Part shown: positions 8,071 to 46,671 of the stretch, one piece after another
How the letters are laid out: each line of letters begins with the position of its first letter
Position numbering within the stretch: position 1 is the stretch's first letter
From: Bacteroidaceae bacterium
GTDB taxonomy: Bacteria > Bacteroidota > Bacteroidia > Bacteroidales > Bacteroidaceae
Length of the DNA stretch: 53,585 nt
Direction of reading: 5' to 3'
Assembly (NCBI GenBank): GCA_017548075.1
Contig: JAFYNL010000058.1
Span: 1-53,585 of the forward strand
Program-made: the position numbers and the translations under genes
The notes under the pieces: generated by a model
What the model saw: the letters and a program-made list of their open reading frames with translations, nothing else
Database searches by the model: none
Told to the model about the DNA's origin: nothing

Positions 8071-8214
8071 TTACCTGCAAGTAATTTCAGAAATACCTTA
8101 AGGTAAATCGCAAAATACCTTAAGGTAATTTGCCAACGACCCACGTGAAGTTTGCAAAGATCACACGTGAAGTTGGGCAACTTAACGTGTTACGTTTGGA
8201 AGTTAACCTAAGGT
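8071..8214. repeat. 22-bp palindrome array 1 (seven units)
   Basis: Core centres lie near 8077, 8099, 8121, 8144, 8166, 8187 and 8210, a period of 21-23 bp. Cores in order are TTACCTGCAAGTAA, ACCTTAAGGT twice, CACGTG twice, TAACGTGTTA and ACCTAAGGT. Spacers resemble one another (TTTGCCAAC, TTTGCAAAG, TTGGGCAAC). The last core touches the stop of the TonB receptor gene. Function unknown. Confidence 0.8.
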
Positions 8215-10611
8215 CTATAACTCGATAAGGATGCGGGCGTTTATCATGCGGCCTGTCAGGTAGTTGGGAACGGCGTACTGGTGGTTCGAGATGTCCGTTA
8301 TCCAATAGTAACTGCTGACGTTGTTGAGGCCAAAGATATTGAAGCAATCCAGTCCGAGCCAGATGTTCCTCAAGTGCTTGCAACGGCGGAGATGATGGTC
8401 CTCGTTATCGATAAGTCGGTAGTTCATGCCAACGTCGAAACGCCGATAGGCAGGGGCTCGGAAGGCATTTCGCTCAAGTCCTGTGTGCGGAGGACCGAAG
8501 GGAAGTCCGTCTGCGAAAGTGGCCTTCAGGTTCATCTTCCAGCGAGTGGTATTGGGGAAATAGTCTGTGAAGAAGAGGTTGATGTTGTAGCGCTGGTCGG
8601 TAGGCTGGGGAATCTTCTGTCCGTTCAGCGACATCGAGGCTTTCATCAGGCCGAAACTAATCCAAGAGTCTGTGCCTGGAACGAACTCGCCATAGAGTTT
8701 GAAGTCGGCTCCAACCACATAACCCGTCGCACAGTTGTTGCCATAATAGACAATCTTGAGGTTGTCCACATTGTAGGGATTCAGCTTCCATTGTGCCTTG
8801 TAGTAGGCTTCGGTAGTGAACTTGAAAGGTCGGTTGGCCACCTTGAACTTGTACTCCATGCCGGCAACCACTTGGAACGAGCGCTGCGACTTGATGTTCT
8901 GGTTGAGTTGAACCGTGGTGTTTCCTGCTATGGTAATGGTGTCGCGAAGCTCCTTATAGAAGGGGCGCTGGTTGTAGAGGCCCATTGCAAGGCGGAATGT
9001 GAAGTTGTCGTTGGCCGCAGGAACGAAGCCAAGACTTGCACGAGGGCTGATGAGCCACTCGCTATTCCAGTTCCAATAACTGAGTCTTACGCCATAATTG
9101 AGGCTGAGAATGCCGACGCTGCTCTCCTTTCGCCAAGTGTCTTGAGCATAGAGTTCGAGGTGGTTGGAGCTGATTTCGTTGCTGGCTCGCATGTTGTAAA
9201 TGACCTGAAGGTCGTTCCCAGTATGGGGCACAGAGTAACCGCTACTGTCGCGATACTCCCATTCGTTCGAGTTCTCGCGAACCTTCTCGTGCTTCCAGCC
9301 CAGACCTGTGTGAATTTGATGGGTGCCAAGTTTCAGGTCGTAAGCCAGTTTCATGGACTGAACGGAGCTGTAGAGGAAGTTGCGAGCGTGCTCCATATAA
9401 GAGCCCACGCCCAGTTGCTCGTCTCCATTCGTCTCGTTCAGCCAATATTGTCCCTGAATGTCATAGGTCTCTTTTTCCCGATTGCTGAAGAGCGATGTGG
9501 TGAGACTGATGGCTCCCTTGCCAAGACGACGAGCCGCCCTAATGGTTCCAAAAAGCGTCTGGAACTGGTCTTCCTCTTTCCCGTCGAAATAGACCTTGAA
9601 GCTCTTCACGTCCTCCAACGTGCCAAACTTGGTCTCGCGATCGGCCGGCTTGAAGTTGTAATTGTTTCGGTTGATATAGACAATGGCGTCGAAGGCCCAA
9701 TCTTTCGTGGGAGCCCAACGGAAGTAAGCCTGATAGTCGAGGAAGTTGGGCTTGTATTCGCCCTTTGTTTCGAGCGAGCCAAGCATATACTGATTCGTCT
9801 TATAACGCAAACCGTTACTGAAGGAGAACTTCTTCTTGCCGTAGCCCACATAAACGTTTGCGCCAAGCAGACTGGCTGCAACTGAGGCTTCGAGCCTCTC
9901 TGGATGGGCATAAGTGATGTCGAGAACGGAGGACATTCTGTCGCCATATTTCGCCTCGAAACCGCCTGCAGAGAAGTTGATCTTCTCCACCATATCGCTA
10001 TTGATGACGGAGAGGCCTTCCTGCTGACCGCTGCTGATGAGCATGGGGCGATAAACCTCCACACCATTGATGTAGACGCAGTTCTCGTCGAACGAACCGC
10101 CGCGCACATTATACTGGCTCGAAAGCTCGTTATGGGTGCTGACGCCAGCCTGCGTGGCAACAAGTTCCTCTACCGCATTGCCGCTCGTCGAGGGCATTCG
10201 CTTAAGGTCTTTCGCGTTGAGTTCCTGCATCGAACCCATTTGCCTTCGCGTCTCAGCAACAGTTACTTCCTGCATTTCCTTGCCGCTCTCTCGCATCACA
10301 ATATTGAGTGTGAGGTTGCCTTTCGGCTTCTTAAGGACGCGTTTGCGAGTCTCGTAACCAATCATGCTGTAAACCACCACCACGCTATCGGCAGTATGGA
10401 AGGAGAAGTTGTACTGTCCGTCCAGCGAAGCCGTCGTGCCAAAAGGCTGACCTTCAATGCGTACCTGACACAAAGAGACTGGGTCTTGGCTCTCGTCGAC
10501 AACCCTTCCCTTCAGGTGCACTTTGGCCGTATCAGGCTCTTGTTCGTCCTGAGCAGACACATTCATAATGCCCCAAAAGAGAGGCAAAAGAAGCAATATG
10601 AAACGTTTCAT
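8215..10611 (-). CDS. TonB-dependent outer-membrane receptor
   Basis: 798 aa. A signal peptide (MKRFILLLLPLFWGIMNVSAQ) is followed by a carboxypeptidase-regulatory-like domain (about 30-115: VHLKGRVVDESQDPVSLCQV... YNFSFHTADSVVVVYSMIGYETRKR), a plug domain (about 125-235, with YNVRGGSFDENCVYINGVEVYRP) and a 22-strand-type barrel to the end. It imports a bulky nutrient across the outer membrane using TonB energy. There is no SusD partner beside it, so it is not a classical glycan-utilisation pair; a metal chelate, cofactor or peptide substrate is as likely. No clear TAnnTTTG box is visible upstream. Confidence 0.9.
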   Translation of the reverse strand: MKRFILLLLPLFWGIMNVSAQDEQEPDTAKVHLKGRVVDESQDPVSLCQVRIEGQPFGTTASLDGQYNFSFHTADSVVVVYSMIGYETRKRVLKKPKGNLTLNIVMRESGKEMQEVTVAETRRQMGSMQELNAKDLKRMPSTSGNAVEELVATQAGVSTHNELSSQYNVRGGSFDENCVYINGVEVYRPMLISSGQQEGLSVINSDMVEKINFSAGGFEAKYGDRMSSVLDITYAHPERLEASVAASLLGANVYVGYGKKKFSFSNGLRYKTNQYMLGSLETKGEYKPNFLDYQAYFRWAPTKDWAFDAIVYINRNNYNFKPADRETKFGTLEDVKSFKVYFDGKEEDQFQTLFGTIRAARRLGKGAISLTTSLFSNREKETYDIQGQYWLNETNGDEQLGVGSYMEHARNFLYSSVQSMKLAYDLKLGTHQIHTGLGWKHEKVRENSNEWEYRDSSGYSVPHTGNDLQVIYNMRASNEISSNHLELYAQDTWRKESSVGILSLNYGVRLSYWNWNSEWLISPRASLGFVPAANDNFTFRLAMGLYNQRPFYKELRDTITIAGNTTVQLNQNIKSQRSFQVVAGMEYKFKVANRPFKFTTEAYYKAQWKLNPYNVDNLKIVYYGNNCATGYVVGADFKLYGEFVPGTDSWISFGLMKASMSLNGQKIPQPTDQRYNINLFFTDYFPNTTRWKMNLKATFADGLPFGPPHTGLERNAFRAPAYRRFDVGMNYRLIDNEDHHLRRCKHLRNIWLGLDCFNIFGLNNVSSYYWITDISNHQYAVPNYLTGRMINARILIEL

Positions 10612-10656
10612 CTTATATAATAACGCGAAAAGTGTCGATTTATTGTATTTATTTCG

Positions 10657-10664
10657 TACCTTTG
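10657..10664 (+). promoter_or_regulatory. -7 box for the nitroreductase operon
   Basis: TACCTTTG followed by C, 21 bp before the ATG at 10686. No good -33 match at the expected distance. Confidence 0.6.
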
Positions 10665-10685
10665 CAGAGCAAATAAGACTAAAAG

Positions 10686-11213: not shown

Positions 11214-11911
11214 TTGGAGCCGGCAATGTGGCGAGTTTCCTAAAGGAGCACATCAAGCCGCCTTTCGAACTGACTGCCGTTGGTGGTCGTCAAAGGAAAT
11301 GTCCGCTCCCAAAGGATGCTGACCTCTACGTCATAGCAGTCTCTGACCGCTCTATTCCCTCTGTGGCAGAGGAACTTAAGGGCGTCGAAGGCTTGGTTGT
11401 TCATACTGCAGGAAGCGTTCCGATGGATGTTCTTCCTCAGCAAAGAAAAGGCGTGCTTTACCCTTTGCAAACGATTTCCAAGACGCGAAAACTGTCTGCC
11501 TCGAAGGTTCCTTTCTATATTGAGGCTTCTCAGCAGCAGGACCTCGAATTGCTTCGGCTGCTTGCAGAGAGTATGGGAAGCAAAGCTACGGCTATGACGA
11601 GCGAGAAGCGCCGATATTTGCATCTCGCTGCCGTCTTCTGTTGCAACTTTGTCAATCGCCTTTATGGCATTACGGCCGACCTCCTTGAAGAGCATGAGAT
11701 TCCTTTCTCGGCCATGCTTCCGCTCATTCACGAAACGGCTGAAAAGGTGGAGCAACTCACTCCTCATCAAGCCCAAACTGGTCCTGCAGTTCGATGGGAC
11801 GAGGAAGTGATGGCTCAGCAAATGGCTCTTCTAAACGATGAGCAACGCCAACTTTATCAATTACTTAGCAAAAGCATTCACGATGATAAACTACGATTTG
11901 ACCAAGATTAA
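11183..11911 (+). CDS. Rossmann-fold DUF2520 protein
   Basis: 242 aa from the ATG at 11183, chosen because it leads directly into the nucleotide-binding strand RTVLIGAGNVASFL; an upstream in-frame ATG (11120) would add 21 unrelated residues inside the nitroreductase gene. N-terminal F420/NADP-oxidoreductase-like Rossmann domain, then an all-helical DUF2520 domain (YLHLAAVFCCNFVNRLYGI... PLIHETAEKV). Members resemble ketopantoate/pyrroline-5-carboxylate reductases but have no assigned reaction. It overlaps the KdsC gene by 29 bp; DUF2520-KdsC-Maf is an order I recognise from other Bacteroidales. Confidence 0.83.
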   Translation: MGARTYRTVLIGAGNVASFLKEHIKPPFELTAVGGRQRKCPLPKDADLYVIAVSDRSIPSVAEELKGVEGLVVHTAGSVPMDVLPQQRKGVLYPLQTISKTRKLSASKVPFYIEASQQQDLELLRLLAESMGSKATAMTSEKRRYLHLAAVFCCNFVNRLYGITADLLEEHEIPFSAMLPLIHETAEKVEQLTPHQAQTGPAVRWDEEVMAQQMALLNDEQRQLYQLLSKSIHDDKLRFDQD

Positions 11912-12401
11912 GGCTCTTGTCTTCGATGTGGACGGCGTTCTCAGCGCTGAGACCATTCAGATGAGCGAAGAAGGTTTGCTTGTCCGCACCCTGAACACGA
12001 AGGACGGATACGCTCTTCGCCTTGCCGTAACGGAAGGACTGCATGTTGCCATCATTACTGGGGCTCGCGAAGAAGCCATTCGCCTCCGTTATGAAAGGCT
12101 CCGCATCAACGATATCTTCCTCGGTAGTTCTGTAAAAACGGACTCCTTGAAGCAGTTGCTCGACAAATACAATCTGTCTCTCGATGAGGTTCTTTACATG
12201 GGTGACGACATTCCAGATTACGAGGTGATGAAGCAGGTGGGACTTCCTTGTTGCCCTGCTGACGCGGCTCCTGAAATCATGGAAATCAGTCGCTATGTTA
12301 GCCATCGCAATGGCGGCTACGGTTGCGTTCGCGATGTCATTGAACAAGTACTCAAGGCTCAAGGGAAATGGATGGCAAATGCCGATGCCTTTAGCTGGTA
12401 A
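11883..12401 (+). CDS. kdsC: KdsC-type HAD phosphatase (KDO-8-phosphate phosphatase)
   Basis: 172 aa from the ATG at 11883, the normal size for this capless HAD group. Motif I is FDVDGVLS (Asp15 and Asp17), motif II Thr is in IITGAREE, Lys is in SSVKTDSLK and motif IV is MGDDIPDYEVM. These enzymes dephosphorylate KDO-8-P for lipopolysaccharide core synthesis and work as tetramers in which a neighbour closes the active site. The alternative is a related sugar-acid phosphatase. Confidence 0.88.
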   Translation: MINYDLTKIKALVFDVDGVLSAETIQMSEEGLLVRTLNTKDGYALRLAVTEGLHVAIITGAREEAIRLRYERLRINDIFLGSSVKTDSLKQLLDKYNLSLDEVLYMGDDIPDYEVMKQVGLPCCPADAAPEIMEISRYVSHRNGGYGCVRDVIEQVLKAQGKWMANADAFSW

Positions 12402-12427
12402 TACACATTATTTTAATTGCGCTCTCA

Positions 12428-12991
12428 ATGAAAATAATCTTAGCAAGTAACTCTCCTCGCCGCCAAGAACTCCTTTCAGGACTTGGGCTCGACTATGAAG
12501 TTCGCACGCTTCGTGGCCTTGATGAATCTTATCCTGAAGGTCTCTCGATGGAGGAAATACCGCAGTATATCAGCCGCAAGAAGGCAGCGGCTTACACACT
12601 TGGAGCCGACGAATTGCTCATAACTGCAGACACAATTGTGTACCTCGATGGAGAAGTTCTTGGCAAACCTGCCGATGAGGCTGAGGCTAAAGAAATGCTT
12701 CGAAAGTTGTCAGGAAAAACGCACCAAGTCGTTACTGGCGTCACTCTTACCTGGAGCAATCAACAACACTCGTTTGCTTCTGTCTCTCAAGTCACTTTTG
12801 CAACGCTTACAGACGCGGAAATCGATTACTATGTTACGCATTATCGTCCTTTGGACAAGGCTGGAGCGTATGGCATACAAGAGTGGATTGGCTACATCGG
12901 TGTTTCGTCTCTTCAAGGTTCCTACTTTAATGTGATGGGCCTTCCTGTTCAACGACTTTATTCTGAAATGAAGAAACTTAATTTAATATGA
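12428..12991 (+). CDS. maf: Maf-family nucleoside triphosphate pyrophosphatase
   Basis: 187 aa. Starts MKIILASNSPRRQELLSGLG, the phosphate-binding signature, with the catalytic Asp in LITADTIVYLDGEVLGKP and SGKTHQVVTGVTLT. The features fit the dTTP/UTP-cleaving YhdE subfamily. It probably clears non-canonical or excess pyrimidine nucleotides. The stop overlaps the next lipoprotein start as ATGA. Confidence 0.92.
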   Translation: MKIILASNSPRRQELLSGLGLDYEVRTLRGLDESYPEGLSMEEIPQYISRKKAAAYTLGADELLITADTIVYLDGEVLGKPADEAEAKEMLRKLSGKTHQVVTGVTLTWSNQQHSFASVSQVTFATLTDAEIDYYVTHYRPLDKAGAYGIQEWIGYIGVSSLQGSYFNVMGLPVQRLYSEMKKLNLI

Positions 12992-13551
12992 AGTGTAAAT
13001 ATTTTTTCATCTGCCTATCTCTGTTAGTTTTCCTTTCTTGCGAAAAGAACGACTACAGTTCTTATTGTCCGACATGGAAGGGTTTCACCTATACGGTTGG
13101 TGCTCGTCCGAACGATGTCGCTGGCAATCCTAGAAATGTTGTCCTGCATCCAGGCGACTCTATCCACCTGACAGCCCATCAGGACAAGCGTGGACACCTC
13201 ATCAATGCAACGTATTACACTTGGACAATCTGTTTCGATACGATTGATGCAAGGAGTGGTGAAAAGGTTCACGCCACGAAAACTTACGACAAACGAACTA
13301 ATTATGATGGCTATGCTGATGGTGCCGACGACCCTATTTGCCATTTGCTTTTGCCCGCAAATGCTTTGCCAACAGATGCGAAACCCGATACCATCAAGTT
13401 TGTAGCCCGCTATAGTTATAGTGGTCAGGGAATTGTGGTTGATAATGGAAACATCATCGAGAACACTTCTTATGGCGGTCGTATTACGCCTCAAAGTGGT
13501 CCAACTGGAGGCGGAGCAGCAGGTTATCTCTACTTCAAAGTGGAGGAATAA
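12988..13551 (+). CDS. Small lipoprotein of unknown function
   Basis: 187 aa with a lipobox (ICLSLLVFLSCEK, lipidated Cys18). The mature part is beta-rich, with an immunoglobulin-like feel (HPGDSIHLTAHQDKRG... TYYTWTICFDT... KFVARYSYSG) and a glycine-rich end (SGPTGGGAAGYLYFKVEE). I do not recognise a family. It is the last gene of the nitroreductase-DUF2520-KdsC-Maf operon, translationally coupled to maf by ATGA, and ends just before palindrome array 2. Confidence 0.75.
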   Translation: MKCKYFFICLSLLVFLSCEKNDYSSYCPTWKGFTYTVGARPNDVAGNPRNVVLHPGDSIHLTAHQDKRGHLINATYYTWTICFDTIDARSGEKVHATKTYDKRTNYDGYADGADDPICHLLLPANALPTDAKPDTIKFVARYSYSGQGIVVDNGNIIENTSYGGRITPQSGPTGGGAAGYLYFKVEE

Positions 13552-13560
13552 AAATCTTCT

Positions 13561-13679
13561 CCAGTTGAGTCGCCAAACATAACGTAGTTAAAATCCAAAG
13601 TTAACGTGTTATGATTGCAAAGTTAACGTGTTAAGTTGGTCAACTTAACGTGTTACGTTTGAGATTTAACTGTAGGTTG
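13561..13679. repeat. 22-bp palindrome array 2 (five to six units)
   Basis: Opens with CCAGTTGAGTCG (13561-13572), then cores TAACGTAGTTA (13580), TAACGTGTTA at 13602, 13624 and 13646 (spacing exactly 22) and a decayed core near 13673. It fills almost the whole space between two convergent genes (stops at 13551 and 13687); no T-run terminator is seen. Confidence 0.85.
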
Positions 13680-13686: not shown

Positions 13687-14448
13687 TCAAGCCTCGAGAA
13701 CCAGTCCGTCGTAGGCATAGTGGAAGCCTGAAGGAAGCTTCTGCTCCTCTATTTCATAAAGCCCAACTTGGTGGCACATGTGAATGAAATAAGTCGGAAT
13801 CTCTCCCAGACTTCGGCTGAACTCAATAGCGTGCTCGACAGTTTGATGAGTCTTGTGAGGCGTATGACGTAAGGCTCCGATAATGAGCAACTTAATGCCT
13901 TTGAGCAAGGGGAGTGAAGAGTCGAACAACTCAGTCATATCTGTGAGGTAAGCCACATCGCCAATCCTGTATCCGAGGATGGGCAACTCGCCATGCATGA
14001 CGCGAATCGCAGTCACTTCGAGCGAGCCAAACTGCAACTTGTCGCCTTCCTTCAGCTCGTGCAAATCCAGTTTTGGAATGCCTGGATAAGTGTGCCTGAC
14101 CAAACAATAGGGAAGCCTTTGGCGCAAATGCCTGCAAGCATAGTCGTCAGCATAAATGGGAAGGTCACGCTCGAAGGTAAATGGACGAAGGTCGTCGATG
14201 CCTCCAACGTGGTCGTAATGCTCGTGAGTGATGAGGACGGCATCAAGCGGCTTTTGCATCTTGATTCGCAACATTTGCTCGCGAAAATCAGGTCCGCAAT
14301 CGATGAGAAGTCTTGTGTCGCCTTCCTCGAAAAGAGCCGAAGCACGAAGACGGCGGTCACGAGGGTCGCTACTTGTGCAAACCTCGCATCCACAGCCTAT
14401 TTGCGGCACTCCAATGCTTGTGCCTGTTCCAAGGAAAGTTATCTTCAT
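13687..14448 (-). CDS. Metallo-beta-lactamase-fold hydrolase, PhnP-like
   Basis: 253 aa from the ATG at 14448; an upstream ATG at 14517 gives 23 residues without the fold. The first strand runs MKITFLGTGTSIGVPQIGCGCEVC, with the Cys-rich segment after strand 1 seen in PhnP-like phosphodiesterases. The metal site is THEHYDHVGG, with further ligands in RVMHGE, LTDMTE and FIHMCHQ. Probably hydrolyses a cyclic nucleotide or phosphodiester in the cytoplasm. The start overlaps the murB stop as ATGA. Confidence 0.85.
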   Translation of the reverse strand: MKITFLGTGTSIGVPQIGCGCEVCTSSDPRDRRLRASALFEEGDTRLLIDCGPDFREQMLRIKMQKPLDAVLITHEHYDHVGGIDDLRPFTFERDLPIYADDYACRHLRQRLPYCLVRHTYPGIPKLDLHELKEGDKLQFGSLEVTAIRVMHGELPILGYRIGDVAYLTDMTELFDSSLPLLKGIKLLIIGALRHTPHKTHQTVEHAIEFSRSLGEIPTYFIHMCHQVGLYEIEEQKLPSGFHYAYDGLVLEA

Positions 14449-16320: not shown

Positions 16321-16351
16321 CAAAAGTACAAATAAACTTTAAACTATCAAC
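16321..16351 (-). promoter_or_regulatory. Promoter of the DUF4348-murB operon
   Basis: Minus-strand GTTG (16351-16348), 19 bp, TACTTTTG (16328-16321); the ATG follows 27 bp later. Confidence 0.55.
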
Positions 16352-16371
16352 TATAAATTTAAACTTTTTTA

Positions 16372-20080: not shown

Positions 20081-20265
20081 GTGTACAGTATACAGAAATA
20101 CAGTATACAGTTTCTATGTGGGCGATACACTTCTTGCTACTGATATAATGAATATATATAGTATAATATAGTTTATTATATAATATATAATAAAAATTTC
20201 GTGTCCGAAGATTTTTATATGTGATATGTGCTCATAAGAAAACTGTATACTGTATACTGTATACA
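20081..20265. repeat. Inverted repeat made of GTATACT heptamers
   Basis: TACAGTATACAGTTT at 20099-20113 is the exact reverse complement of 20240-20254. Both arms extend as further TATACAG/CTGTATA heptamers (left from 20081, right to 20265). The 126-bp centre is extremely AT-rich. The design parallels the element at 7967-8059. Confidence 0.8.
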
Positions 20266-20363: not shown

Positions 20364-20398
20364 TAGTGTCGAAACAAAGGCAGCGTCGATTGCAAACA

Positions 20399-20451
20399 TA
20401 ACACGTTAACTTGGCCAACTACACATGTTATGTTCGTCGATGTGGCACGTG
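20399..20451. repeat. 22-bp palindrome array 3 (three units)
   Basis: Cores TAACACGTTA (20399-20408), ACATGT (20423-20428) and CACGTG (20446-20451) are spaced 22 and 23 bp. The second and third units lie inside the 3' end of the small ORF at 20406-20594, whose stop codon is the TTA of the first core. Confidence 0.7.
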
Positions 20452-26038: not shown

Positions 26039-26047
26039 ATAAATTGA

Positions 26048-26086
26048 CAAAAAAACGCCGTCCAAGATATTTCTTGAACGACGCAC
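26048..26086 (-). terminator. Intrinsic terminator after the FadL-like porin gene
   Basis: A long stem (about 26056-26067 with 26074-26085) is followed on the minus strand by seven T. It lies 120 bp beyond the porin stop, with array 4 between the stop and this hairpin. Confidence 0.8.
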
Positions 26087-26102
26087 TTGTTTTTATTGAT
26101 TT

Positions 26103-26190
26103 AACTACTCCAGTTAAGTTGATAAACTTAACACGTTATGTTTGCAATCTTAACACGTTAAATCAGGCAACTTAACACGTTATGTTTGCC
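26103..26190. repeat. 22-bp palindrome array 4 (four units)
   Basis: Opens CCAGTTAAGTTG (26110-26121), like array 2, then TAACACGTTA at 26129, 26151 and 26173, exactly 22 bp apart, joined by TTTGC-type spacers. It is inside the porin transcript, between the stop codon (26207) and the terminator. Confidence 0.88.
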
Positions 26191-26206
26191 AACGACACTG
26201 GGGATG

Positions 26207-27556
26207 TTAGAGGTCGAGGTTAACACCAATGCCGAAGCTATGGTTCTTGCGGCTGTAAACGTCTTTCTTAGGACCTGCAGCGGTTTGAGTTGTGACTTCG
26301 CGGTCGTTGTAGAAAGTGCACATATAACCCAAGTCGATGCTGAGTCTGTTTGTGGCATGAATGCGAACGCCACCACCTACCATGTTGTTCGAAAGGCTGT
26401 AAGAGAGGTCGTTCATGTATTCGTCGCTAAGTCCGTAACGAGTGATTTCCCAAGAACCTGAAATGGTGAGGAGCTTGTTGATGTCGTATTCTGCACCCAG
26501 AATGAACTCGTGAGTGTTGTGGTCGATGAGTTCCTGCTTGTCAAGATACTTTGTGGAAACCTTATCGAAGAACTGGTGATAGCTGGCACAAAGACGAACT
26601 TTCTCGATGGGAGAGTACTGAGCGCCAAGAGCCAGGAGTGCAGGAACATCCTCGCGAACCTTCTTGCCGTCCTCGAACTGGCCAAGTACAGTCGCAGCTT
26701 TCTCTCTGACGATATCCTCTGCAATGTTGATTTCGCTCTTGTTCTTCAAGTTCAATCTGGTAGGACATTCGTACTTTGCAGACACATTCCACTTGTCGTT
26801 AATCTTGTAGTCAACACCCAGAATAACTGTTGCGCCAAAGCCTGTCTGGTCGCAATTCAGATCGATTCCGTAGTTATTGAGTGGCACAATGCCTAAAGCG
26901 TCAGTTTTAATGGATGGATTCACAAAGCCATTGTAGTTGGCATTAGCATAGAGAGCACGAACGCCAACATAGCCTGCAATCTTTTCTGTGAACTTATAAG
27001 CGCCACCAATCTGCAAGCCGAAGTGGTATGAACGTCCCTTCATATAGCTATTAAGCGAGTAACCTTGATAGTTAACCCCTGTTGGCAAGAGGCTTGGAGC
27101 CATTTGATAGAGCACGCCAGCATAAGCTGCCTCGAAGGAACCTATGCCGTTGTCGAACTCGCACTTGCCTCCACCACCACTTATGGCGAAGTGTGCAGAG
27201 AGGTTCCACCTGTCTTTATTATAAGAAACTGTAAACGAGGGAACGACAGGAGCAGTAGCTTTGCCCTCGAACAGATGGGTTGGATTAGGATTGTCGATGT
27301 TGTACTGGAAAAGTGGGAAAGTAGTTTCGATGTTCCTCTGCTGGAAAGCCGTCTGGCTGTTAAGGCTTAGGTGCCATCCGTCCTCCAGGAAAGCGCCGCC
27401 AGCAGGGTTGGCGTAGATACTGGTTAAGTCAATTTTACCTTCCTGAGCAAAGTTGCGTACGAAGGCTGCATTCTGGTTTGTGTTGGTCAAGAGACCGCCG
27501 GCAAATGCGCTGCTTACAGCTGCAAAAGCCATTAAACTAAGGATTATTTTCTTCAT
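26207..27556 (-). CDS. OmpP1/FadL/TodX-family outer-membrane transporter
   Basis: 449 aa with a signal peptide (MKKIILSLMAFAAVSSAFAGG). The mature N-terminus (GLLTNTNQNAAFVRNFAQEG then IDLTSIYANPAGGAFLEDGW) is the hatch signature of the FadL family; the rest is an amphipathic beta barrel ending in SFGIGVNLDL. FadL-like channels carry hydrophobic compounds such as fatty acids across the outer membrane. Single gene with its own promoter and terminator. Confidence 0.88.
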   Translation of the reverse strand: MKKIILSLMAFAAVSSAFAGGLLTNTNQNAAFVRNFAQEGKIDLTSIYANPAGGAFLEDGWHLSLNSQTAFQQRNIETTFPLFQYNIDNPNPTHLFEGKATAPVVPSFTVSYNKDRWNLSAHFAISGGGGKCEFDNGIGSFEAAYAGVLYQMAPSLLPTGVNYQGYSLNSYMKGRSYHFGLQIGGAYKFTEKIAGYVGVRALYANANYNGFVNPSIKTDALGIVPLNNYGIDLNCDQTGFGATVILGVDYKINDKWNVSAKYECPTRLNLKNKSEINIAEDIVREKAATVLGQFEDGKKVREDVPALLALGAQYSPIEKVRLCASYHQFFDKVSTKYLDKQELIDHNTHEFILGAEYDINKLLTISGSWEITRYGLSDEYMNDLSYSLSNNMVGGGVRIHATNRLSIDLGYMCTFYNDREVTTQTAAGPKKDVYSRKNHSFGIGVNLDL

Positions 27557-30987: not shown

Positions 30988-31076
30988 TTTTGCTTTCATT
31001 TTGACACTTGTAAAATGGAGCGATTTCAGACGCAAAATGGTTCGTTTTGAGTCGAAACACGCCTCTTTTACCAACT

Positions 31077-31172
31077 AGGTTAGGGTAATTTGCCAATTAG
31101 GTTAAGGTAGTTTGCCAACTTAACACGTTAACTTTGCCAACGACCCACGTTAAGTTTGGCATTTTCCCACGT
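31077..31172. repeat. 22-bp palindrome array 5 (five units)
   Basis: Core centres near 31081, 31103, 31125, 31148 and 31170. Cores: TAGGTTAGGG, TTAGGTTAAGG, TAACACGTTA, CCACGTTAA, CCCACGTTAA. The unit TTTGCCAACTTAACACGTTA (31111-31130) is close to the family consensus. As in array 1, AGGT-type cores and ACGT-type cores share the same TTTGCCAA spacer. Confidence 0.8.
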
Positions 31173-31268
31173 TAAAATCCGTCGAAAAACCTGCGTTTTT
31201 GGCCGTTTTTGCTAACTGAAGTTGCCAATTTAGCATGATTTTGGAGTCTCCTAAAGAGCTAACGTATA

Positions 31269-31451: not shown

Positions 31452-32174
31452 TTAAAATAAGACAGAAATATTTCCCCAGTGCCCCATCCCTTTTATGTTT
31501 TTATTCTTGATAAAATTTAGATTATAGCCAATTGCAATGTTCTTGTGAAATTGGATGCCGGCTTTAAAATCAAGCCCGAAACATGATTGCCGATATTTCC
31601 ATTTCCATGCTAGTTGATTGTTTGGATGGAAACCTTTTTCATTTGCATAAATAAATGAAAAGCCAAGATTCAAGCCAGCATATATTCTAAATTCGTGTGC
31701 AGGCGTGTATAATCTTAATCCTAAGGGCCTAAGATTAAACAAGCCTTGTTCCCTAGGATTGCAGAAGCCTGACATGTATGAAACATCTAGTATGTTCAGA
31801 GCCGCAATTGGAAGTAGTGTTCTCCTAAATTGATAGCCAACACCCCAACCATTTTGGATATATAGATCTATTTCGTGTGTATATTTTTTCCCACCTCCAT
31901 ATTTAGAACAGAATGAGTTGAATCTTGACAGTTTAGGATTGTCACCGAATGTTTGAATGTCACCGTTATTATACTTTATAGAATATAGATTCGAGCATTT
32001 CTCAACGAAAGTAGGACCATCTTCATTAGTACTCTTTTTATACTTTACTTCTGTCGAAGATATTTCGAGAACTTTCACATTCTCAGCTTCTCCACTTTTG
32101 CGAACAAGGATGTCTTGAGCATTTGTGGAAAGGAAAGATGTAGTAAGAAGTGCAAAAAGGATAATCTTTTTCAT
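31452..32174 (-). CDS. Outer-membrane beta-barrel protein, AT-rich gene
   Basis: 240 aa with a signal peptide (MKKIILFALLTTSFLSTNAQD). A short N-terminal domain common in Bacteroidetes (ILVRKSGEAENVKVLEISST... YSIKYNNGDIQTF) precedes an 8-strand-like barrel (LDVSYMSGF, FRIYAGLNLGFSFIYAN, FGLDFKAGIQFHKNIAIGYNL). The C-terminus ends in Phe, as expected for BAM insertion. The gene looks clearly more AT-rich than its neighbours, a possible sign of transfer. It has no own promoter box between its ATG and a terminator 29 bp upstream, so the structured leader at 32.2-32.4 kb probably controls it. Confidence 0.78.
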   Translation of the reverse strand: MKKIILFALLTTSFLSTNAQDILVRKSGEAENVKVLEISSTEVKYKKSTNEDGPTFVEKCSNLYSIKYNNGDIQTFGDNPKLSRFNSFCSKYGGGKKYTHEIDLYIQNGWGVGYQFRRTLLPIAALNILDVSYMSGFCNPREQGLFNLRPLGLRLYTPAHEFRIYAGLNLGFSFIYANEKGFHPNNQLAWKWKYRQSCFGLDFKAGIQFHKNIAIGYNLNFIKNKNIKGMGHWGNISVLF

Positions 32175-35295: not shown

Positions 35296-35631
35296 AAGGG
35301 CGCACTGGAGATGTGATGAAACTCCGAAAAACAGGTTTTGAGGGTTCGCTGCCTCTGTAATCCATCTAACCACATTGGGATGGCCCGCCATTAGCACACG
35401 AAACATTTCTCGGTAATAAAATGTAAATTGATGAGTATCCCGATCAAACCAGTACGCCCGTATGATGTCTGTGTCTTAACCACTGTAAGACCATTTCGGA
35501 CTTCAATGATACTGCAAAAATAGGCATTCTTATCTTATTCTGCAAGCTTTTTAACATTTTTCTTTCGCTCAGCTTGTCTTTTTCTCGAATTCTTCCTAAT
35601 TTTGTTATGGAAAACGCAAGAAAAAGCACTT
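35296..35631. other. Non-coding stretch upstream of malQ with several small hairpins
   Basis: No credible ORF and no array unit. Not AT-rich until about 35510. Small stems: ATGG-CCCG-CCAT near 35375, TTGAT/ATCAA near 35429, GTCTT/AAGAC (35475-35493). On the minus strand one part resembles a tRNA D-arm, without matching acceptor arms. It could be an unrecognised RNA or decayed sequence. Confidence 0.5.
35573..35604 (+). promoter_or_regulatory. Promoter of malQ
   Basis: CTTG (35573-35576), 20 bp, TAATTTTG (35597-35604); ATG at 35632. Confidence 0.72.
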
Positions 35632-38085
35632 ATGACGCTTAATTTCTCGATAGAATACAGGACAGAGTGGGGACAGAACGTTGAAGTGGAACTTTGCTTC
35701 CTTTCTTCGGAGGGCAAAACACATTGGCAACGCATCCCTCTCGAGACGGATGACGGCCTGATTTGGAGGGGGTTATGCACGCTCAAAGCACGGAGCAAGC
35801 AGTTCAGATATACGTATATAATTACAACTGAAAGTGAGGTTGTGAGACGAGAATGGGACGTTGTTCCCAGACTTTTCCCTGCTGACGATGCACGAACCTA
35901 CTTCTTCATTGACCATTGGCGCGATATTCCGGAGTCTTCTCATTGTTATACGGATGCTTATCAGGTTGCTTCAGGGCAGGACAAACTGCCGGAAACTTCT
36001 GTGGCGCTCTTCCCTAAAACCTATCTTTTCCGCGTTCAGGCTCCTCAACTTGCTAAGGGAGAACGGGTTGCACTTGTGGGCGACCAACCGACTTTGGGCA
36101 ATTGGGATGTGGAACGAGCCTTGCCGATGGTGCATTCGAAGCAGCAAGAATGGCTTCTTTCCATTAGTGGCGACGGACTTCGTCTGCCTTTCCAATATAA
36201 ATATGTGGTAATAGGGGAGGACCAAACAATTAAATGGGAGGAAGGTCCAAACAGGCAGAGTCCAGAATCTCAACTCTCTGTCTTTGATTCCAAATGGGTG
36301 ATTTCTCTTTCCGATGGTCAGATAAGATTGGGAACTTCCCATTGGAAAGTGGCTGGCCTCGTGGTTCCTCTCTTCTCTCTTCGCTCAGAAGGCAGTCAAG
36401 GAGTAGGTGATTTCGGCGACCTTAAAGAGATTGCCGATTGGGCTGCTCAAGCGGGAATGCATGCCGTTCAACTGCTTCCTATTTACGATACCATTCAGGA
36501 AGGCAAGGAGACTGACAGCTATCCCTATAATGCGATTAGTGTTCATGCTCTTCATCCTATTTATGCCGACCTTCGTCAGTTGCCGCTCTCGGACAAGAAG
36601 GAACTCGCTACATTCCAGAAGAAATGGCAGAAACTGAATGCACTTCCTGCATTGGATTATGTAGAAGTCATCAAGTTGAAGGTTGAATACTTGCGTCTTT
36701 ATTATAAGGAACAAGTGGAAGGCGTTTTTCAAAAGGCAGACTATCAAACTTTTGCGAAAGATAATGCCGAGTGGTTGCTGCCGTATAGTGTCTTCTGTCA
36801 TCTGCGAGACACTTATGGAACGCCTGACTTCTCGAAGTGGAAGAGGCTTTCAACTTACAACAGGAGTGCCGTTACGAAGTACATCGACGCTCATTCTGAG
36901 GAGGTTAGCTTCTATGCTTTCGTGCAATATCTCCTGCATAAACAACTCTCCGAAGCAGCCGAATATGCCCATCATCGCAAGGTTTTCCTGAAGGGAGATT
37001 TGCCGATAGGCATCAGTCCAAAGAGTGTGGAAGCTTGGCAAGAGCCGCATCTCTTCAACATGAATATGGTGGCAGGTGCTCCTCCAGATGACTTCTCGAG
37101 GACGGGACAAAACTGGGGTTTCCCGACTTATGATTGGGAACGAATGGCTGAAGACGGTTATCTTTGGTGGCGACAAAGGTTGGGAGGAATGGCACAATAC
37201 TTCAGCGCATATCGCATAGACCACATTCTCGGCTTCTTCCGCATTTGGTCAATTCCCAAAAGCAGTCCTGATGCTTTGCTCGGACAGTTCTCTCCGGCCT
37301 TACCTCTAAGCAAGGAAGAGATAGAATCTTACGGAATGGCGTTCCATAAAGAGCTTTTCGTGCCTGATGCAAAAGAGCCGAAACGCTTTCATCCGCGAAT
37401 CGGAGTGATTGGCGAGAAAGCCTGGCGTTCGTTGGTCAAGTACGAGCAAGATGCTTTCATCCGTCTTTACGAGGACTTTTTCTTCCGTCGCCATAATGAT
37501 TTTTGGGCGTCTCAAGCCATGAAGAAACTGCCTGCACTCTTGGACGCAAGCAATATGCTGGTTTGTGGCGAAGACCTAGGAATGGTGCCAGAATGTGTTG
37601 GGCCAGTCATGAAGCAACTTGGCATCCTCAGTCTCGAAATACAAGCTATGCCGAAGACTTATGGTGTTCCGTTTGCTCAACTTCATGAGAATCCTTATCG
37701 AAGCGTGGATACTATCTTCACACACGATATGCCGACGCTTCGCCTTTGGTGGAAAGAGAATCCTGAACGCACGCAATTATATTATAATAATGTATTGGAG
37801 CATGATGGAAAGGCTCCCGAAGAACCGTCAGGTTGGCTTTGTGAGGAGATAATTGCCCATCATCTGAACTCGCCCTCGATGCTTTGTCTCATCAGTCTTC
37901 AAGATTGGCTTTCGATAGATGAACGTTTGAGGAATCCAAACTTAGAAGAAGAGCGCATTAATGTTCCCGCTAATCCCAAGAACTATTGGCGTTACAGGAT
38001 GCATCTTCCAATATCGGAACTCAAGCAAGCAAAAGCTTTCAACGAATGTCTGCAACTGCTCATCTCTCGTTCCGAAAGAGCATAA
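35632..38085 (+). CDS. malQ: 4-alpha-glucanotransferase (amylomaltase) with two CBM20 domains
   Basis: 817 aa from the ATG at 35632; the frame extends to a TTG inside the promoter, which is not used. Two N-terminal starch-binding CBM20 domains (about 1-105 and 125-225, the second with GDQPTLGNWDVERALPM) precede a GH77 catalytic domain. Nucleophile Asp in YRIDHILGFFRIWSIP, acid/base Glu in VCGEDLGMVPE, third carboxylate in FTHDMPTLRLWW. It moves glucan chains between maltodextrins or glycogen. No signal peptide, so cytoplasmic. The domain order matches plant DPE2-type enzymes and other Bacteroidetes MalQ. Confidence 0.94.
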   Translation: MTLNFSIEYRTEWGQNVEVELCFLSSEGKTHWQRIPLETDDGLIWRGLCTLKARSKQFRYTYIITTESEVVRREWDVVPRLFPADDARTYFFIDHWRDIPESSHCYTDAYQVASGQDKLPETSVALFPKTYLFRVQAPQLAKGERVALVGDQPTLGNWDVERALPMVHSKQQEWLLSISGDGLRLPFQYKYVVIGEDQTIKWEEGPNRQSPESQLSVFDSKWVISLSDGQIRLGTSHWKVAGLVVPLFSLRSEGSQGVGDFGDLKEIADWAAQAGMHAVQLLPIYDTIQEGKETDSYPYNAISVHALHPIYADLRQLPLSDKKELATFQKKWQKLNALPALDYVEVIKLKVEYLRLYYKEQVEGVFQKADYQTFAKDNAEWLLPYSVFCHLRDTYGTPDFSKWKRLSTYNRSAVTKYIDAHSEEVSFYAFVQYLLHKQLSEAAEYAHHRKVFLKGDLPIGISPKSVEAWQEPHLFNMNMVAGAPPDDFSRTGQNWGFPTYDWERMAEDGYLWWRQRLGGMAQYFSAYRIDHILGFFRIWSIPKSSPDALLGQFSPALPLSKEEIESYGMAFHKELFVPDAKEPKRFHPRIGVIGEKAWRSLVKYEQDAFIRLYEDFFFRRHNDFWASQAMKKLPALLDASNMLVCGEDLGMVPECVGPVMKQLGILSLEIQAMPKTYGVPFAQLHENPYRSVDTIFTHDMPTLRLWWKENPERTQLYYNNVLEHDGKAPEEPSGWLCEEIIAHHLNSPSMLCLISLQDWLSIDERLRNPNLEEERINVPANPKNYWRYRMHLPISELKQAKAFNECLQLLISRSERA

Positions 38086-38097
38086 CAGAAAAAACAA

Positions 38098-38216
38098 CTA
38101 CTGTTAGGTCGGCAAACTTAACGTGGTTAAATCGCAAACTTAACGTGTTATATTTGCAAAGTTAACGTGTTAAGATTGCAATCGTAACGTGTTACGTTTG
38201 GCAACAACCCACGTTA
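38098..38216. repeat. 22-bp palindrome array 6 (six units)
   Basis: Core centres near 38103, 38124, 38145, 38167, 38189 and 38212. Cores TAACGTGGTTA, TAACGTGTTA three times, then CCCACGTTA. It fills the whole space between the malQ stop (38085) and the mltG stop (38222); the mltG end reads directly out of it. Confidence 0.88.
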
Positions 38217-38221
38217 TGTTT

Positions 38222-39226
38222 TTAACGTATCCCTCTTTCATTGAGTGCCCTCACATATCGACGAGCATTCGCATAGTGCTCTGAAAGCGTTCTGGCAAAG
38301 TTGTGAGTACCCGAGAAATCCTCTTTCGCGCACATATACAGGAAGTCGTGTTCGGCATGATTCAGAACTGCGTCCAGTCCTGCAATACTTGCAATTCGGA
38401 TAGGACCTGGAGGAAGTCCTGCGACGCGATATGTATTATAGGGACTCTCGACGAGAAGATGCTTGTTGAGGATGCGGCGAAGCGAGAAATCTCCAACTGC
38501 GAACTTAACTGTCGGGTCGGCCTGAAGATTCATTCCAATACGCAGACGATTGAGGTATAGGCCTGCAATCATCGGCTTTTCAGCATCGTTGGCAGTCTCT
38601 TCATCTACGATACTTGCAAGAGTTGCAACTTGTTCGTGAGTCAGTCCTATTGCCTCTGCCTTCGCTTTTCTTTCGGCCGTCCAGAAGCGATTGTTCTCCT
38701 TTTCCATTCGTTCAACAAGTTTGTCGACAGGAATGTCCCAATAAACTTCGTAAGTGTTCGGAATGAAGAGGGCAGGAATGGTGGCAGTCGTGTAACCTCG
38801 ATCCGCACAATAAGTACTGTCCGTCAAGGCTTGGGCAATCTCGGCAGAATCCACCATCAGGCTTTGAGAAAGCACAGAAGCGAGCTTGTCCATCGTTCTT
38901 GCAGTCGGAACAACAAGGTTCATCGGCTCTTGAGTCCCGTTTCGGAGCAGACGATAAAGTTGCAGGCAAGTCATTTCAGGCAGAACATGATAGCGACCAG
39001 TTCTGGGATGAATGCTGAATACCTTATTATATATGTCCCATCGCCAACCCAGTTCGGACTTTGCTTTGAGGCTATCCAGATTGTCGTCTCTGTCGATGTA
39101 AATCAACCTTCCCAGTCCTTCGTCTCCGCTTGGAGCCTTAGCAGATATCAGAGAATACGTAAAACCCGTTGCTCCAGCCACAATCGCGACCAGAATACCT
39201 ATCAGCCAAAGAAACTTCTTACTCAT
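38222..39226 (-). CDS. mltG: Endolytic murein transglycosylase MltG
   Basis: 334 aa. One N-terminal membrane anchor (FLWLIGILVAIVAGATGFTYSL), a LysM-like part, then the YceG catalytic domain: IPNTYEVYWDIPVD, the catalytic Glu in LASIVDEETANDAEKPMIAGLYLNRL, MNLQADPTVKFAVG and the family end SPYNTYRVAGLPPGPIRIAS. It cuts nascent glycan strands and sets their length. Confidence 0.93.
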   Translation of the reverse strand: MSKKFLWLIGILVAIVAGATGFTYSLISAKAPSGDEGLGRLIYIDRDDNLDSLKAKSELGWRWDIYNKVFSIHPRTGRYHVLPEMTCLQLYRLLRNGTQEPMNLVVPTARTMDKLASVLSQSLMVDSAEIAQALTDSTYCADRGYTTATIPALFIPNTYEVYWDIPVDKLVERMEKENNRFWTAERKAKAEAIGLTHEQVATLASIVDEETANDAEKPMIAGLYLNRLRIGMNLQADPTVKFAVGDFSLRRILNKHLLVESPYNTYRVAGLPPGPIRIASIAGLDAVLNHAEHDFLYMCAKEDFSGTHNFARTLSEHYANARRYVRALNERGIR

Positions 39227-39280: not shown

Positions 39281-39286
39281 ATTTTT

Positions 39287-39310
39287 CACTTTTCACTTTT
39301 CACTTTTCAC
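39287..39310. repeat. Tandem CACTTTT heptamers
   Basis: Three full copies plus CAC, lying between the mltG promoter and the tRNA-Thr promoter. Seven-base periods also build the inverted repeats at 7.97 and 20.1 kb. Confidence 0.8.
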
Positions 39311-39319
39311 ATTTTGTTG

Positions 39320-43817: not shown

Positions 43818-43833
43818 AGTGGTGAAGACTGGA

Positions 43834-45560: not shown

Positions 45561-45592
45561 TTTGGCAGTTATAATAATAAATGCTAAATTTG
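45561..45592 (+). promoter_or_regulatory. Promoter of the outer-membrane protein at 45626
   Basis: TTTG (45561-45564), 20 bp, TAAATTTG (45585-45592), full consensus; 33-nt distance to the ATG. Confidence 0.82.
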
Positions 45593-45625
45593 CATGTTGA
45601 AAACTATAACTAATACATATACTCT

Positions 45626-46519
45626 ATGAACTTTTTGAAACTAATGCCCGCAGCGTTGTTGATGAGCCTAAGCCTCAACGCATTTGCTCAGGATGAGGAC
45701 GAACTGTTAGACGAAGTAACGGATGAGGAATCCACAGAAGTGGTAGTTACTACTCCTACTGACAAGAAATTCTTCCAACGAGTACAATTAGGCTATACTG
45801 GTACAACCGTAAACTTCGAGAACAAGAAACCGGATGAGAATACTGCGGTTTTGAGTGAGAAGTATTTCCTAAGTGGTATAACCTTCGGATGGGCAGGTGA
45901 CTTGCGCATCGACAAGGATAACAGTCTTTTCCTGGAAGTTGGCGCAAACCTCGGCGTTCATGTAGGTACCAGCAAGGATAAGAACTGGAATGTGCATCAC
46001 GACGCTTATTACCGTTATAAAGTAAAAGCTTTCACAGTTGCAATTCCCGTTAGCATCAATAAGCAGTTTAAGGATGCTTTTGGAGTTCAAGACCTTACTT
46101 TGGCACCCTTCGCAGGCCTTAATTTCCGTTTCAATGTAATGGCAAAGCGTACAGCTACCGAGTATAACGAAGATGGTTCAAAGACTGGAAAAACTTATAC
46201 TGCAAGCCTGATGGATACTGATAAAGGTCCGGACTTTGGTGAGAGCACACGTTATATGAGAGCTTTTGACAAGAAACTGCATGTTGGTAAACTCCTCCAG
46301 CCAGGCGTACAACTTGGCGTGAATGCTTACTACCAGCGCTATTTCTGCGGTATCTCTTATATGTACGACTTAAGGCCATTTGCTAAGCACGTAAGTTCGC
46401 CTGAGTTGACATCTAAGGAAACTCCAGAAGGCGGCAATCTGCCCAACATTGGTACAAACTGCGACATAAAGGCTACAACGTCTCACAACATCGCAATCAA
46501 CTTCGGCTACGTCTTCTAA
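45626..46519 (+). CDS. Outer-membrane beta-barrel protein
   Basis: 297 aa with a signal peptide (MNFLKLMPAALLMSLSLNAFAQ) and an acidic linker (DEDELLDEVTDEESTEV), then barrel strands with an outer-membrane-type C-terminal Phe (HNIAINFGYVF). Family not recognised beyond porin-like. Strong promoter and terminator suggest high expression as a single gene. Confidence 0.78.
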   Translation: MNFLKLMPAALLMSLSLNAFAQDEDELLDEVTDEESTEVVVTTPTDKKFFQRVQLGYTGTTVNFENKKPDENTAVLSEKYFLSGITFGWAGDLRIDKDNSLFLEVGANLGVHVGTSKDKNWNVHHDAYYRYKVKAFTVAIPVSINKQFKDAFGVQDLTLAPFAGLNFRFNVMAKRTATEYNEDGSKTGKTYTASLMDTDKGPDFGESTRYMRAFDKKLHVGKLLQPGVQLGVNAYYQRYFCGISYMYDLRPFAKHVSSPELTSKETPEGGNLPNIGTNCDIKATTSHNIAINFGYVF

Positions 46520-46539
46520 AAGATAAAGATAAAACAGAA

Positions 46540-46580
46540 CACCGCCTCGAAAGATTTGCTCTTCGGGGCGGTGCTTTTTG
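46540..46580 (+). terminator. Terminator of the gene at 45626
   Basis: CACCGCC (46540-46546) pairs with GGCGGTG (46567-46573), extended by CGAA/TTCG, then TTTTTG. Confidence 0.88.
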
Positions 46581-46601
46581 CTAGGGTTTCAAACCAGGCT
46601 C

Positions 46602-46671
46602 GTTAACTTTCCAAACTTAACACGTGATGTTTGCAATCATAACACGTTACGTTTGCATTTTAACCACGTTA
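46602..46671. repeat. 22-bp palindrome array 7 (four units)
   Basis: Cores GTTAAC (46602-46607), CACGTG (46621-46626), TAACACGTTA (46640-46649) and TAACCACGTTA (46661-46671), spacing 19-22 bp. It lies after the plus-strand terminator and ends 17 bp before the rprY stop. Confidence 0.8.

What the first reader, a model, noticed from the sequence alone, without database searches (positions are those of the whole stretch)
8071..46671. Dispersed family of intergenic arrays with 22-bp period and exchangeable palindromic cores
Seven arrays (8071-8214, 13561-13679, 20399-20451, 26103-26190, 31077-31172, 38098-38216, 46602-46671; about 34 units) share a 21-23 bp period, a core that is palindromic or nearly so, and a spacer resembling AAGTTTGCCAACT. 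The dominant core is TAACGTGTTA or its complement TAACACGTTA. A period of about two helical turns would put every core on the same DNA face, as for a protein that binds cooperatively along the array. I do not recognise the family. Alternatives are a MITE-like tandem-repeat element or a nucleoid-protein site.
Basis: partly seen in the sequence, partly recalled or inferred. Interest (0 to 1): 0.9.

Follow-up and report, generated by a model that had tools for sequence, protein, structure and literature searches.

The report
22-bp palindrome arrays at gene ends
A rumen bacterium and many of its relatives carry numerous short DNA arrays, in this genome mostly just after genes, whose repeat spacing is fixed at 22 base pairs while the repeated sequence changes from species to species, which suggests an unknown protein that coats DNA at gene ends.

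Summary
The seven arrays belong to a genome-wide family: 92 arrays in an 832-kb sample, 2 to 7 units each. Unit spacing is 22 bp or a multiple in 472 of 473 cases, although neighbouring units differ at about 8 of 22 positions. Other species of the genus have 22-bp arrays with unrelated but again palindromic units; a few also show 23-bp ones. Arrays keep their place between orthologous genes (20 of 26 versus 8 of 92 comparisons) while the core changes. In the home genome, of 42 arrays between co-oriented genes 41 lie nearer the upstream gene's end, and 32 lie between convergent genes. Arms do not covary and orientation ignores gene direction, which favours duplex DNA bound by a homodimer every 22 bp. 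I propose a bidirectional boundary or roadblock at transcription-unit ends. Home-genome convergent gaps with arrays often lack an intrinsic terminator (p = 0.0001), but two relatives and a pooled orthologue test do not show this. REP/RAYT features and most MITE and BrickBuilt features were tested and not met. The binding protein is unknown.

The parts
8058..8214 (.). array 1: about 6-7 units, cores ACCTTAAGGT (x2), CACGTG (x2), TAACGTGTTA, end core CCTAAGG; between convergent genes 6353-7930(+) and 8215-10611(-), ends at the stop codon of the latter
13556..13679 (.). array 2: about 5 units, core TAACGTGTTA x3, end units with CTCCAG and CTGTAGG; between convergent genes 12988-13551(+) and 13687-14448(-); no intrinsic terminator found in the gap
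20389..20440 (.). array 3: two units (TAACACGTTA, CACATGTTA); gene context unclear (gap between 19930 and a weak 62-aa ORF call)
26105..26206 (.). array 4: core TAACACGTTA x3 with CTCCAG and CACTGG end units; directly after the stop codon of 26207-27556(-), between it and a hairpin at about 26043-26090; conserved unit by unit in G047
31067..31176 (.). array 5: five units, two with AGGTTAAGGT-type core, three with CACGTT; between convergent genes 30490-30987(+) and 31452-32174(-)
38098..38221 (.). array 6: five units, core TAACGTGTTA x3; fills the convergent gap between 35632-38085(+) and 38222-39226(-); arrays, several with other cores, lie in the same gap in G005, G012, G038, G047, G063, G064
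46602..46681 (.). array 7: three to four units, core TAACACGTTA type; convergent gap, between a GC-rich terminator at about 46542-46585 and the stop codon of 46688-47392(-)
8215..10611 (-). TonB-dependent receptor-like outer membrane protein; its 3' end abuts array 1; used as orthologue anchor
26207..27556 (-). outer membrane transport protein (Toluene_X/FadL type); its 3' end abuts array 4; orthologue anchor
35602..38085 (+). 4-alpha-glucanotransferase (GH77 with CBM20); converges on array 6
38222..39226 (-). YceG-like protein; converges on array 6; orthologue anchor
46688..47392 (-). response regulator (receiver + Trans_reg_C); 3' end abuts array 7; orthologue anchor

Best explanation
The arrays are phased operator arrays. 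An abundant homodimeric DNA-binding protein, not yet identified, binds each palindromic unit as duplex DNA, and dimers pack side by side every 22 bp (about two turns) on one face of the helix, normally 3 to 6 per array. Each coated stretch of about 110 bp marks the end of a transcription unit and acts the same way from both sides, as a barrier or insulator that stops or slows RNA polymerase, separates convergent genes, or both. The spacing is fixed by protein-protein contact; the half-site sequence drifts with the protein's specificity, so arrays stay in place while their sequence turns over species by species. Shown here: fixed 22-bp phase, dyad symmetry, sequence turnover with positional conservation, and location after stop codons in the home genome. 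Inferred: the protein, cooperative binding, and the barrier function.
For: Spacing 22 or a multiple in 472 of 473 unit pairs while adjacent units differ at 8.1 of 22 positions on average, n = 318. Intergenic lag-22 excess: own 88, G011 36, G015 27 segments, against at most 3, 2 and 12 at the neighbouring lags 20, 21, 23 and 24. Palindromic centres per unit against column-shuffled units: own 0.43 vs 0.03, G011 0.24 vs 0.04, G015 0.19 vs 0.02. Genus-wide: 45 of 139 genomes (own included) have at least 20 matches to three CACG at lag 22, maximum 552; none of 139 exceeds 8 with the same pattern at lag 23 (my counts from the tables). Position conserved: relative has an array in 20 of 26 comparisons where own has one versus 8 of 92 where it has none, Fisher p = 2e-11 (the 26 come from 13 own gaps, so they are not independent; 12 of the 13 have an array in at least one relative). 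Placement: of 89 arrays assigned to a gap, 32 convergent, 42 co-oriented, 15 divergent; 41 of the 42 are nearer the upstream 3' end, median 19 bp from the stop codon versus 157.5 bp to the next start. Orientation independent of gene direction: 12 of 25 co-oriented arrays with a clear orientation read one way relative to the genes, 13 the other (445-kb sample). No arm covariation: intra-unit pairing 7.45 of 14 versus 7.76 for random unit pairs. Own convergent gaps: 11 of 31 with array have an intrinsic terminator, 19 of 21 without (p = 1.3e-4). Of 21 single profile hits (score 13 or more) in 832 kb outside arrays, 5 are intergenic, two of them one palindromic site.
Against: No binding protein found and no expression data. 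The terminator relation is absent in G011 (p = 0.31) and G015 (p = 0.49), and in the pooled orthologous 3' ends of four genes (14 of 37 with array versus 42 of 103 without, p = 0.85). At two of those loci the home array lies between the stop codon and a normal terminator, so it cannot be the only terminator there. In co-oriented gaps of the home genome, terminators are if anything commoner with arrays (13 of 39 versus 23 of 123, p = 0.076). In G011 and G015 arrays are not clearly enriched in convergent gaps. 15 of 89 arrays lie in gaps called divergent, though some may be near missed genes or the tmRNA. The period is not 22 in every species: the reversed pattern (GCAC three times) at lag 23 has 43 matches in G108, 22 in G107 and 19 in G010. 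Array abundance is patchy: 24 of 139 genomes have no CACG-type match at all.
Confidence: 0.42

Rival explanations
1. Nucleoid or topology sites: the same phased protein arrays, but serving chromosome folding or supercoil management where transcription complexes converge; the effect on transcription is incidental.
For: High copy number (92 in 832 kb, about 290 extrapolated), strict phase, bidirectional symmetry, bias to convergent gaps in the home genome (32 of 54). Coexistence with normal terminators at some loci fits better than a terminator role.
Against: Convergent bias is not clear in G011 and G015; conserved presence at particular gene pairs asks for a local role.
Confidence: 0.22
2. RNA elements: arrays are transcribed into 3' UTRs and fold into hairpins (9-base arms, CACG/CGUG loop) that stabilise or terminate transcripts, as proposed for REPs.
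For: 3'-end placement; palindromic units with variable arms and a recurring CACG/CGTG centre between species; of 12 strand folds of six window arrays, 7 have z of -2.05 or lower.
Against: Arms do not covary within or between neighbouring units, and real arrays fold worse than chimeras of units from other arrays (-5.65 vs -6.40 kcal/mol per unit, p = 4e-4, n = 41 arrays; part of this comes from the uniform head-to-tail orientation of real arrays). Orientation is random with respect to transcription. The C and G two bases apart at the centre are among the most conserved positions, yet could not pair across a 2-base loop.
Confidence: 0.17
3. Selfish minisatellite or MITE family that survives downstream of genes because insertions there do little harm; sequence homogeneity within a genome comes from recent copying or gene conversion.
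For: Patchy abundance between species; outward-facing end units give arrays inverted ends; downstream placement is also what purifying selection against promoter damage would leave.
Against: No target-site duplication signal (best 5.5, maxima of 20 permutations 4.1-7.3), no conserved flank beyond the end unit, array presence conserved at orthologous gaps while sequence differs, spacing constraint stronger than sequence constraint, array length limited to 2-7 units in the home sample.
Confidence: 0.14
4. Promoter arrays: units carry the Bacteroidetes -7 box TAnnTTTG (recalled consensus) on both strands, giving bidirectional or antisense transcription, as reported for BrickBuilt segments.
For: 186 TANNTTTG matches in 9,020 bases of own arrays against 25 in the reversed control; BrickBuilt segments have bidirectional promoter activity (abstract of PMC4596501).
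Against: By eye the motif is not kept in the species with other cores shown (for example G038, G012, G031); unit spacing does not give the recalled -33/-7 distance; placement after stop codons is odd for promoters.
Confidence: 0.05

Closest known systems
BrickBuilt minisatellite/MITE of Porphyromonas gingivalis (PMC4596501)
   Same: Bacteroidales; dispersed intergenic tandem repeats of nearly the same period (23 nt), imperfect units, predicted stem-loops, inverted ends; a few relatives here (G108, G107, G010) also show 23-bp repeats
   Different: In the home genome the period is exactly 22, arrays are 2-7 units, no leader or tail, about 290 copies (extrapolated) instead of 19, positions conserved between species, sequence turnover across a genus. 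The BrickBuilt unit sequence was not seen in the parts read, so no direct comparison was made.
REP/BIME elements with RAYT transposases (GTAG and CGTC superfamilies, PMC3733652, passages read)
   Same: Short palindromes in many copies, downstream of genes and between convergent genes
   Different: No constant GTAG/CGTC tag on units, no RAYT domain found in the home genome, strict 22-bp tandem phase, units hardly ever found singly
Plasmid iterons (recalled: R6K and F-type, about 22-bp tandem initiator sites)
   Same: Tandem about two-turn spacing of protein sites
   Different: Hundreds of chromosomal arrays at gene ends instead of one origin
Eukaryotic rDNA terminators bound by TTF-I/Reb1 (recalled)
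   Same: Protein-bound repeat sites downstream of genes that stop polymerase; works like, not a member
   Different: Bacterial, genome-wide, palindromic; no homologue sought

Membership tests
BrickBuilt | 23-nt tandem unit | tested here: not met
   home genome: unit spacing 22 or a multiple in 472 of 473; 23-bp repeats appear in a few relatives
BrickBuilt | conserved leader and tail segments around the repeats | tested here: not met
   flank information low, mostly under 0.2 bits, beyond about 16 bp outside the units, 91 arrays, and beyond about 37 bp from the last CACG axis apart from single weak columns, 182 ends
BrickBuilt | sequence homology to P. gingivalis units | not tested
   unit sequence not seen in the parts of the paper read (abstract, first part of full text, sections 5 and 8)
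MITE | target-site duplications | tested here: not met
   no direct-repeat excess across 91 arrays at any tried offset; old elements could have lost them
MITE | terminal inverted repeats | tested here: inconclusive
   end units tend to face outward with CTGCAG/CCTAG/CCAG centres on both sides, but units are palindromic anyway
REP/BIME with RAYT | Y1 transposase (PF01797) in the genome | tested here: not met
   0 matches in the home genome (88% complete); 4 of 12 genomes searched have one
REP/BIME with RAYT | GTAG or CGTC tag beside the palindrome | tested here: not met
   GTAG 7, CTAC 5, CGTC 17, GACG 11 of 318 unit windows of 26 bases
Intrinsic terminator | GC-rich hairpin followed by T-run | tested here: not met
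   AT-rich units without a constant T-run; a few unit pairs score as weak hairpins
CRISPR | repeats separated by unrelated spacers of constant length | tested here: not met
   the whole 22-bp unit repeats, the part between cores included; cas genes were not sought

The most novel reading that the evidence does not exclude
A bacterial boundary system: a fast-evolving homodimer that polymerises on DNA in 22-bp steps and has taken over the ends of many transcription units, in places replacing intrinsic terminators, with hundreds of sites per genome evolving in concert with the protein's specificity while their positions stay fixed.
Probability: 0.25. Interest if true: 0.92.

Novelty: new variant of a known kind. 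Interest (0 to 1): 0.78.

Why it matters
If right, the genus offers a natural experiment in which spacing is conserved and sequence is not, at hundreds of positions, so that a DNA-binding specificity and its whole site set can be followed as they change together. It would also add a protein-coated end-of-gene element to bacterial gene organisation and might recast BrickBuilt-like repeats as functional sites and not only mobile debris.

Tried and rejected
Intrinsic terminator reading: rejected as a direct description because units are AT-rich and lack a constant T-run. The first terminator scan was too loose, counting array hairpins (it gave 13 of 18 convergent array gaps with a terminator versus 10 of 10 without array, p = 0.13), and was replaced by versions that leave out hairpins inside arrays.

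RNA covariation and folding: no support; window folds are moderately stable, as palindromes must be. MITE: no duplication signal. REP/RAYT: no domain, no tag.

Search for the binding protein through arrays in divergent gaps and isolated high-scoring units led nowhere: isolated units are nearly absent, and the flanking genes, read by eye without a family search, do not point to one regulator. Of 16 window proteins scanned against Pfam, mostly array neighbours, 11 have a match at E 0.001 or better (two of them under the curated cut-off), with ordinary functions, and 5 have none.

Viral contigs: a two-unit pattern of the home core gave 0 exact matches.

Outside the genus: of the other 294 genomes of the order, 33 have any match and 3 have at least 10 (G197 and G303 of a sister genus; G413, mostly one locus), so the CACG-centred class is concentrated near this genus.

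Literature: eight text searches and passages of two papers gave no account of such arrays other than BrickBuilt; only open-licence PubMed Central papers are held.
Full report
OBSERVATION. The seven arrays are real. A unit profile from the TAACACGTTA seeds, refined by iteration, gives the consensus TTTGCMAACKTAACACGTTAAS, close to a palindrome; matches fall on both strands of the same array, offset by 8 or 14 bases. In the home genome (G000, 2,657,075 bases in 66 contigs, 88% complete) the 16-mer AACACGTTAAGTTTGC with one mismatch has 297 matches against 0 for the reversed control.

SAMPLE. I took stretches of 12 further contigs, giving 832,066 bases with the window, and called genes with a simple codon model of my own, not a published gene finder. 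There are 92 arrays with at least 3 profile hits, counting both strands (2, 16, 29, 30, 13 and 2 arrays of 2, 3, 4, 5, 6 and 7 units), 410 units in all, about 294 arrays when scaled to the genome. Of 21 single hits with score 13 or more outside arrays, 16 lie in coding sequence and 5 are intergenic, two of them the two strands of one palindromic site. Units therefore work, if they work, mostly in groups.

PHASE. Of 473 neighbouring same-strand hits within 80 bp, 463 are 22 apart, 7 are 44, 2 are 66 and 1 is 61. Adjacent units, walked in steps of 22 and so including weak end units, differ on average at 8.1 of 22 positions (n = 318). Point changes have accumulated while length changes are practically absent, so the spacing itself appears to be under selection.

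SEQUENCE-INDEPENDENT TEST. Self-match segments at lag 22 in intergenic DNA: own 88, G011 36, G015 27, G001 3, G003 2, G004 0. Other lags give few, apart from multiples of 7, which come at least partly from a separate heptamer repeat (own 16 at lag 14; G015 19, 12, 8 and 5 at lags 14, 21, 28 and 35), and in G015 lags 16 and 24 (7 and 8). Array units of relatives are often unrelated in letters and again palindromic, for example TTGCTTGTACATGTACAAGCAA (L085), TGATTATTCCATGGCCATGGAA (L127) and AAGTCTTGCGCAAGACCGCCTG (L131); others in the same list are less so. Palindromic centres per unit exceed column-shuffled units 6- to 14-fold in own, G011 and G015. A pattern of three CACG at lag 22 has at least 20 matches in 45 of 139 genomes of the genus, own included, up to 552 in G122, and none in 24 (my counts). 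The tool's reversed control there (GCAC) is also high in several genomes (G036 261 versus 216 for the pattern, G010 56 versus 5), but it has the same 22-base spacing and so is no control for the period. The same pattern at lag 23 exceeds 8 in no genome, but its reversed form reaches 43 in G108, 22 in G107 and 19 in G010: a few species seem to have 23-bp arrays too. Across 295 genomes of the order, 34 have any lag-22 match.

POSITION KEPT, SEQUENCE CHANGED. I compared 118 orthologous gaps between own and stretches of ten relatives. Where own has an array the relative has one in 20 of 26 comparisons; where own has none, in 8 of 92 (some of these 8 may be false at the low threshold used). The 26 come from 13 own gaps and are not independent; 12 of the 13 have an array in at least one relative. 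In the gap 38085-38222 own has TTAACGTGTTAA, G005 the same, G047 TATCACGTGGGTA, G063 a mixture, G038 GCCGCACGCGGC, G012 and G064 others. Array 4 is conserved unit by unit in G047 without length change; at the gap of array 7 three of seven relatives have an array and four do not. Hybrid units, one arm of each type (G011: CAACAAGGCACGTTAAGTCGGG), suggest half-site by half-site replacement.

ANATOMY OF THE ENDS. Counting outward from the last CACG unit, 182 ends tend to share a terminal unit with AACT, a centre of CTGCAG, CCTAG or CCAG type, and an outer GTTT, facing outward on both sides. Centres CTAG, CTGC, CCAG or CTGG make up 55 of 184 end units against about 20 of 226 internal ones (only the commonest internal centres were printed). 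Beyond it little is conserved and no direct repeats flank the arrays.

PLACEMENT. Of 92 arrays, 89 could be assigned to a gap: 32 convergent, 42 co-oriented and 15 divergent; 2 lie inside an ORF call and 1 had no gene on one side. In co-oriented gaps 41 of 42 are closer to the upstream 3' end, median 19 bp from the stop codon versus 157.5 bp to the next start. Gaps with a lag-22 array: convergent 32 of 54, co-oriented 42 of 169, divergent 13 of 68. One array in a divergent gap lies beyond the 3' end of the tmRNA gene, about 135 bp away. In G011 (7 of 31, 23 of 137, 7 of 37) and G015 (3 of 27, 13 of 147, 4 of 35) the bias to convergent gaps is weak or absent.

TERMINATORS. In own convergent gaps of 50 to 600 bp a hairpin-plus-T terminator outside the array is found in 11 of 31 with array and 19 of 21 without (p = 1.3e-4; two thresholds on the smaller sample gave p = 0.003 and 0.001; a looser first scan that counted array hairpins gave p = 0.13). 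In 8 of the 20 array gaps without terminator, less than 45 bp remains beside the array, too little for one. Against this: G011 and G015 show no relation, co-oriented own gaps lean the other way (13 of 39 versus 23 of 123), and over 140 orthologous 3' ends of four genes, own included (28 of 168 set aside for lack of a gap, 2 of 170 loci too short), terminators occur in 14 of 37 with and 42 of 103 without array (p = 0.85; the array call there includes some heptamer repeats). At the loci 46688 and 26207 the home array lies between stop codon and terminator. So arrays do not simply stand in for terminators everywhere.

DNA OR RNA. Orientation of units is mostly uniform inside an array but random towards genes: 12 of 25 co-oriented arrays with a clear orientation read one way, 13 the other (445-kb sample). 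Paired positions within a unit match no better than between random units (7.45 versus 7.76 of 14); single pairs scatter around expectation, one (11-18) above it (z 3.8) and three below. Real arrays fold as RNA worse than chimeras (41 arrays), partly because real arrays are head-to-tail. In the six window arrays folded, 7 of 12 strand folds have z of -2.05 or lower. I therefore favour recognition as duplex DNA.

MECHANISM. Shown: phase, symmetry, turnover, position, end-of-gene placement in the home genome. Inferred: a homodimer packing every two turns, and a barrier function. The protein was not found.

ORGANISM. The closest protein matches (93-95% identity over 798 aa) are metagenome assemblies titled Prevotellaceae, Bacteroidaceae or Bacteroidales, several from ruminant stomachs by their titles; Candidatus Physcousia equi has 70% and Paraprevotella about 66%.

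PAPERS. PMC4596501: abstract, first part of the full text and sections 5 and 8 read. PMC5771137 and PMC3733652: passages only. Others: search listings only. The iteron, TTF-I and -7/-33 promoter comparisons are recalled.

Noticed in passing
G108, G107, G010: Repeats with a 23-bp period (GCAC or CACG at lag 23) in a few genomes of the genus, the period reported for BrickBuilt; may be a 23-bp version of the same class.
   Followed up: no
window 16333-16367, 20084-20111, 20242-20264, 39283-39314; also G015 stretches (lags 14, 21, 28): 7-bp tandem repeats in intergenic DNA; a second, separate repeat habit of this group with period 7.
   Followed up: no
window 8022-8053: Three copies of a GGTGTAGAGTG-like 10-11-mer beside array 1, with similar inverted copies nearby.
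   Followed up: no
window 11838-13551: Three consecutive ORFs of exactly 187 aa on the + strand upstream of array 2, possibly a tandem gene family; the last one has no Pfam match.
   Followed up: no
L150 (contig CAJOKK010000160.1): A record titled Atopobiaceae encodes a 65% identical relative of the Bacteroidales receptor gene, so the contig looks misbinned.
   Followed up: no
G036, G038, G063, G064: High counts also for the reversed pattern GCAC at lag 22; matched strings of G064 show GCAC next to CACG in the units.
   Followed up: partly
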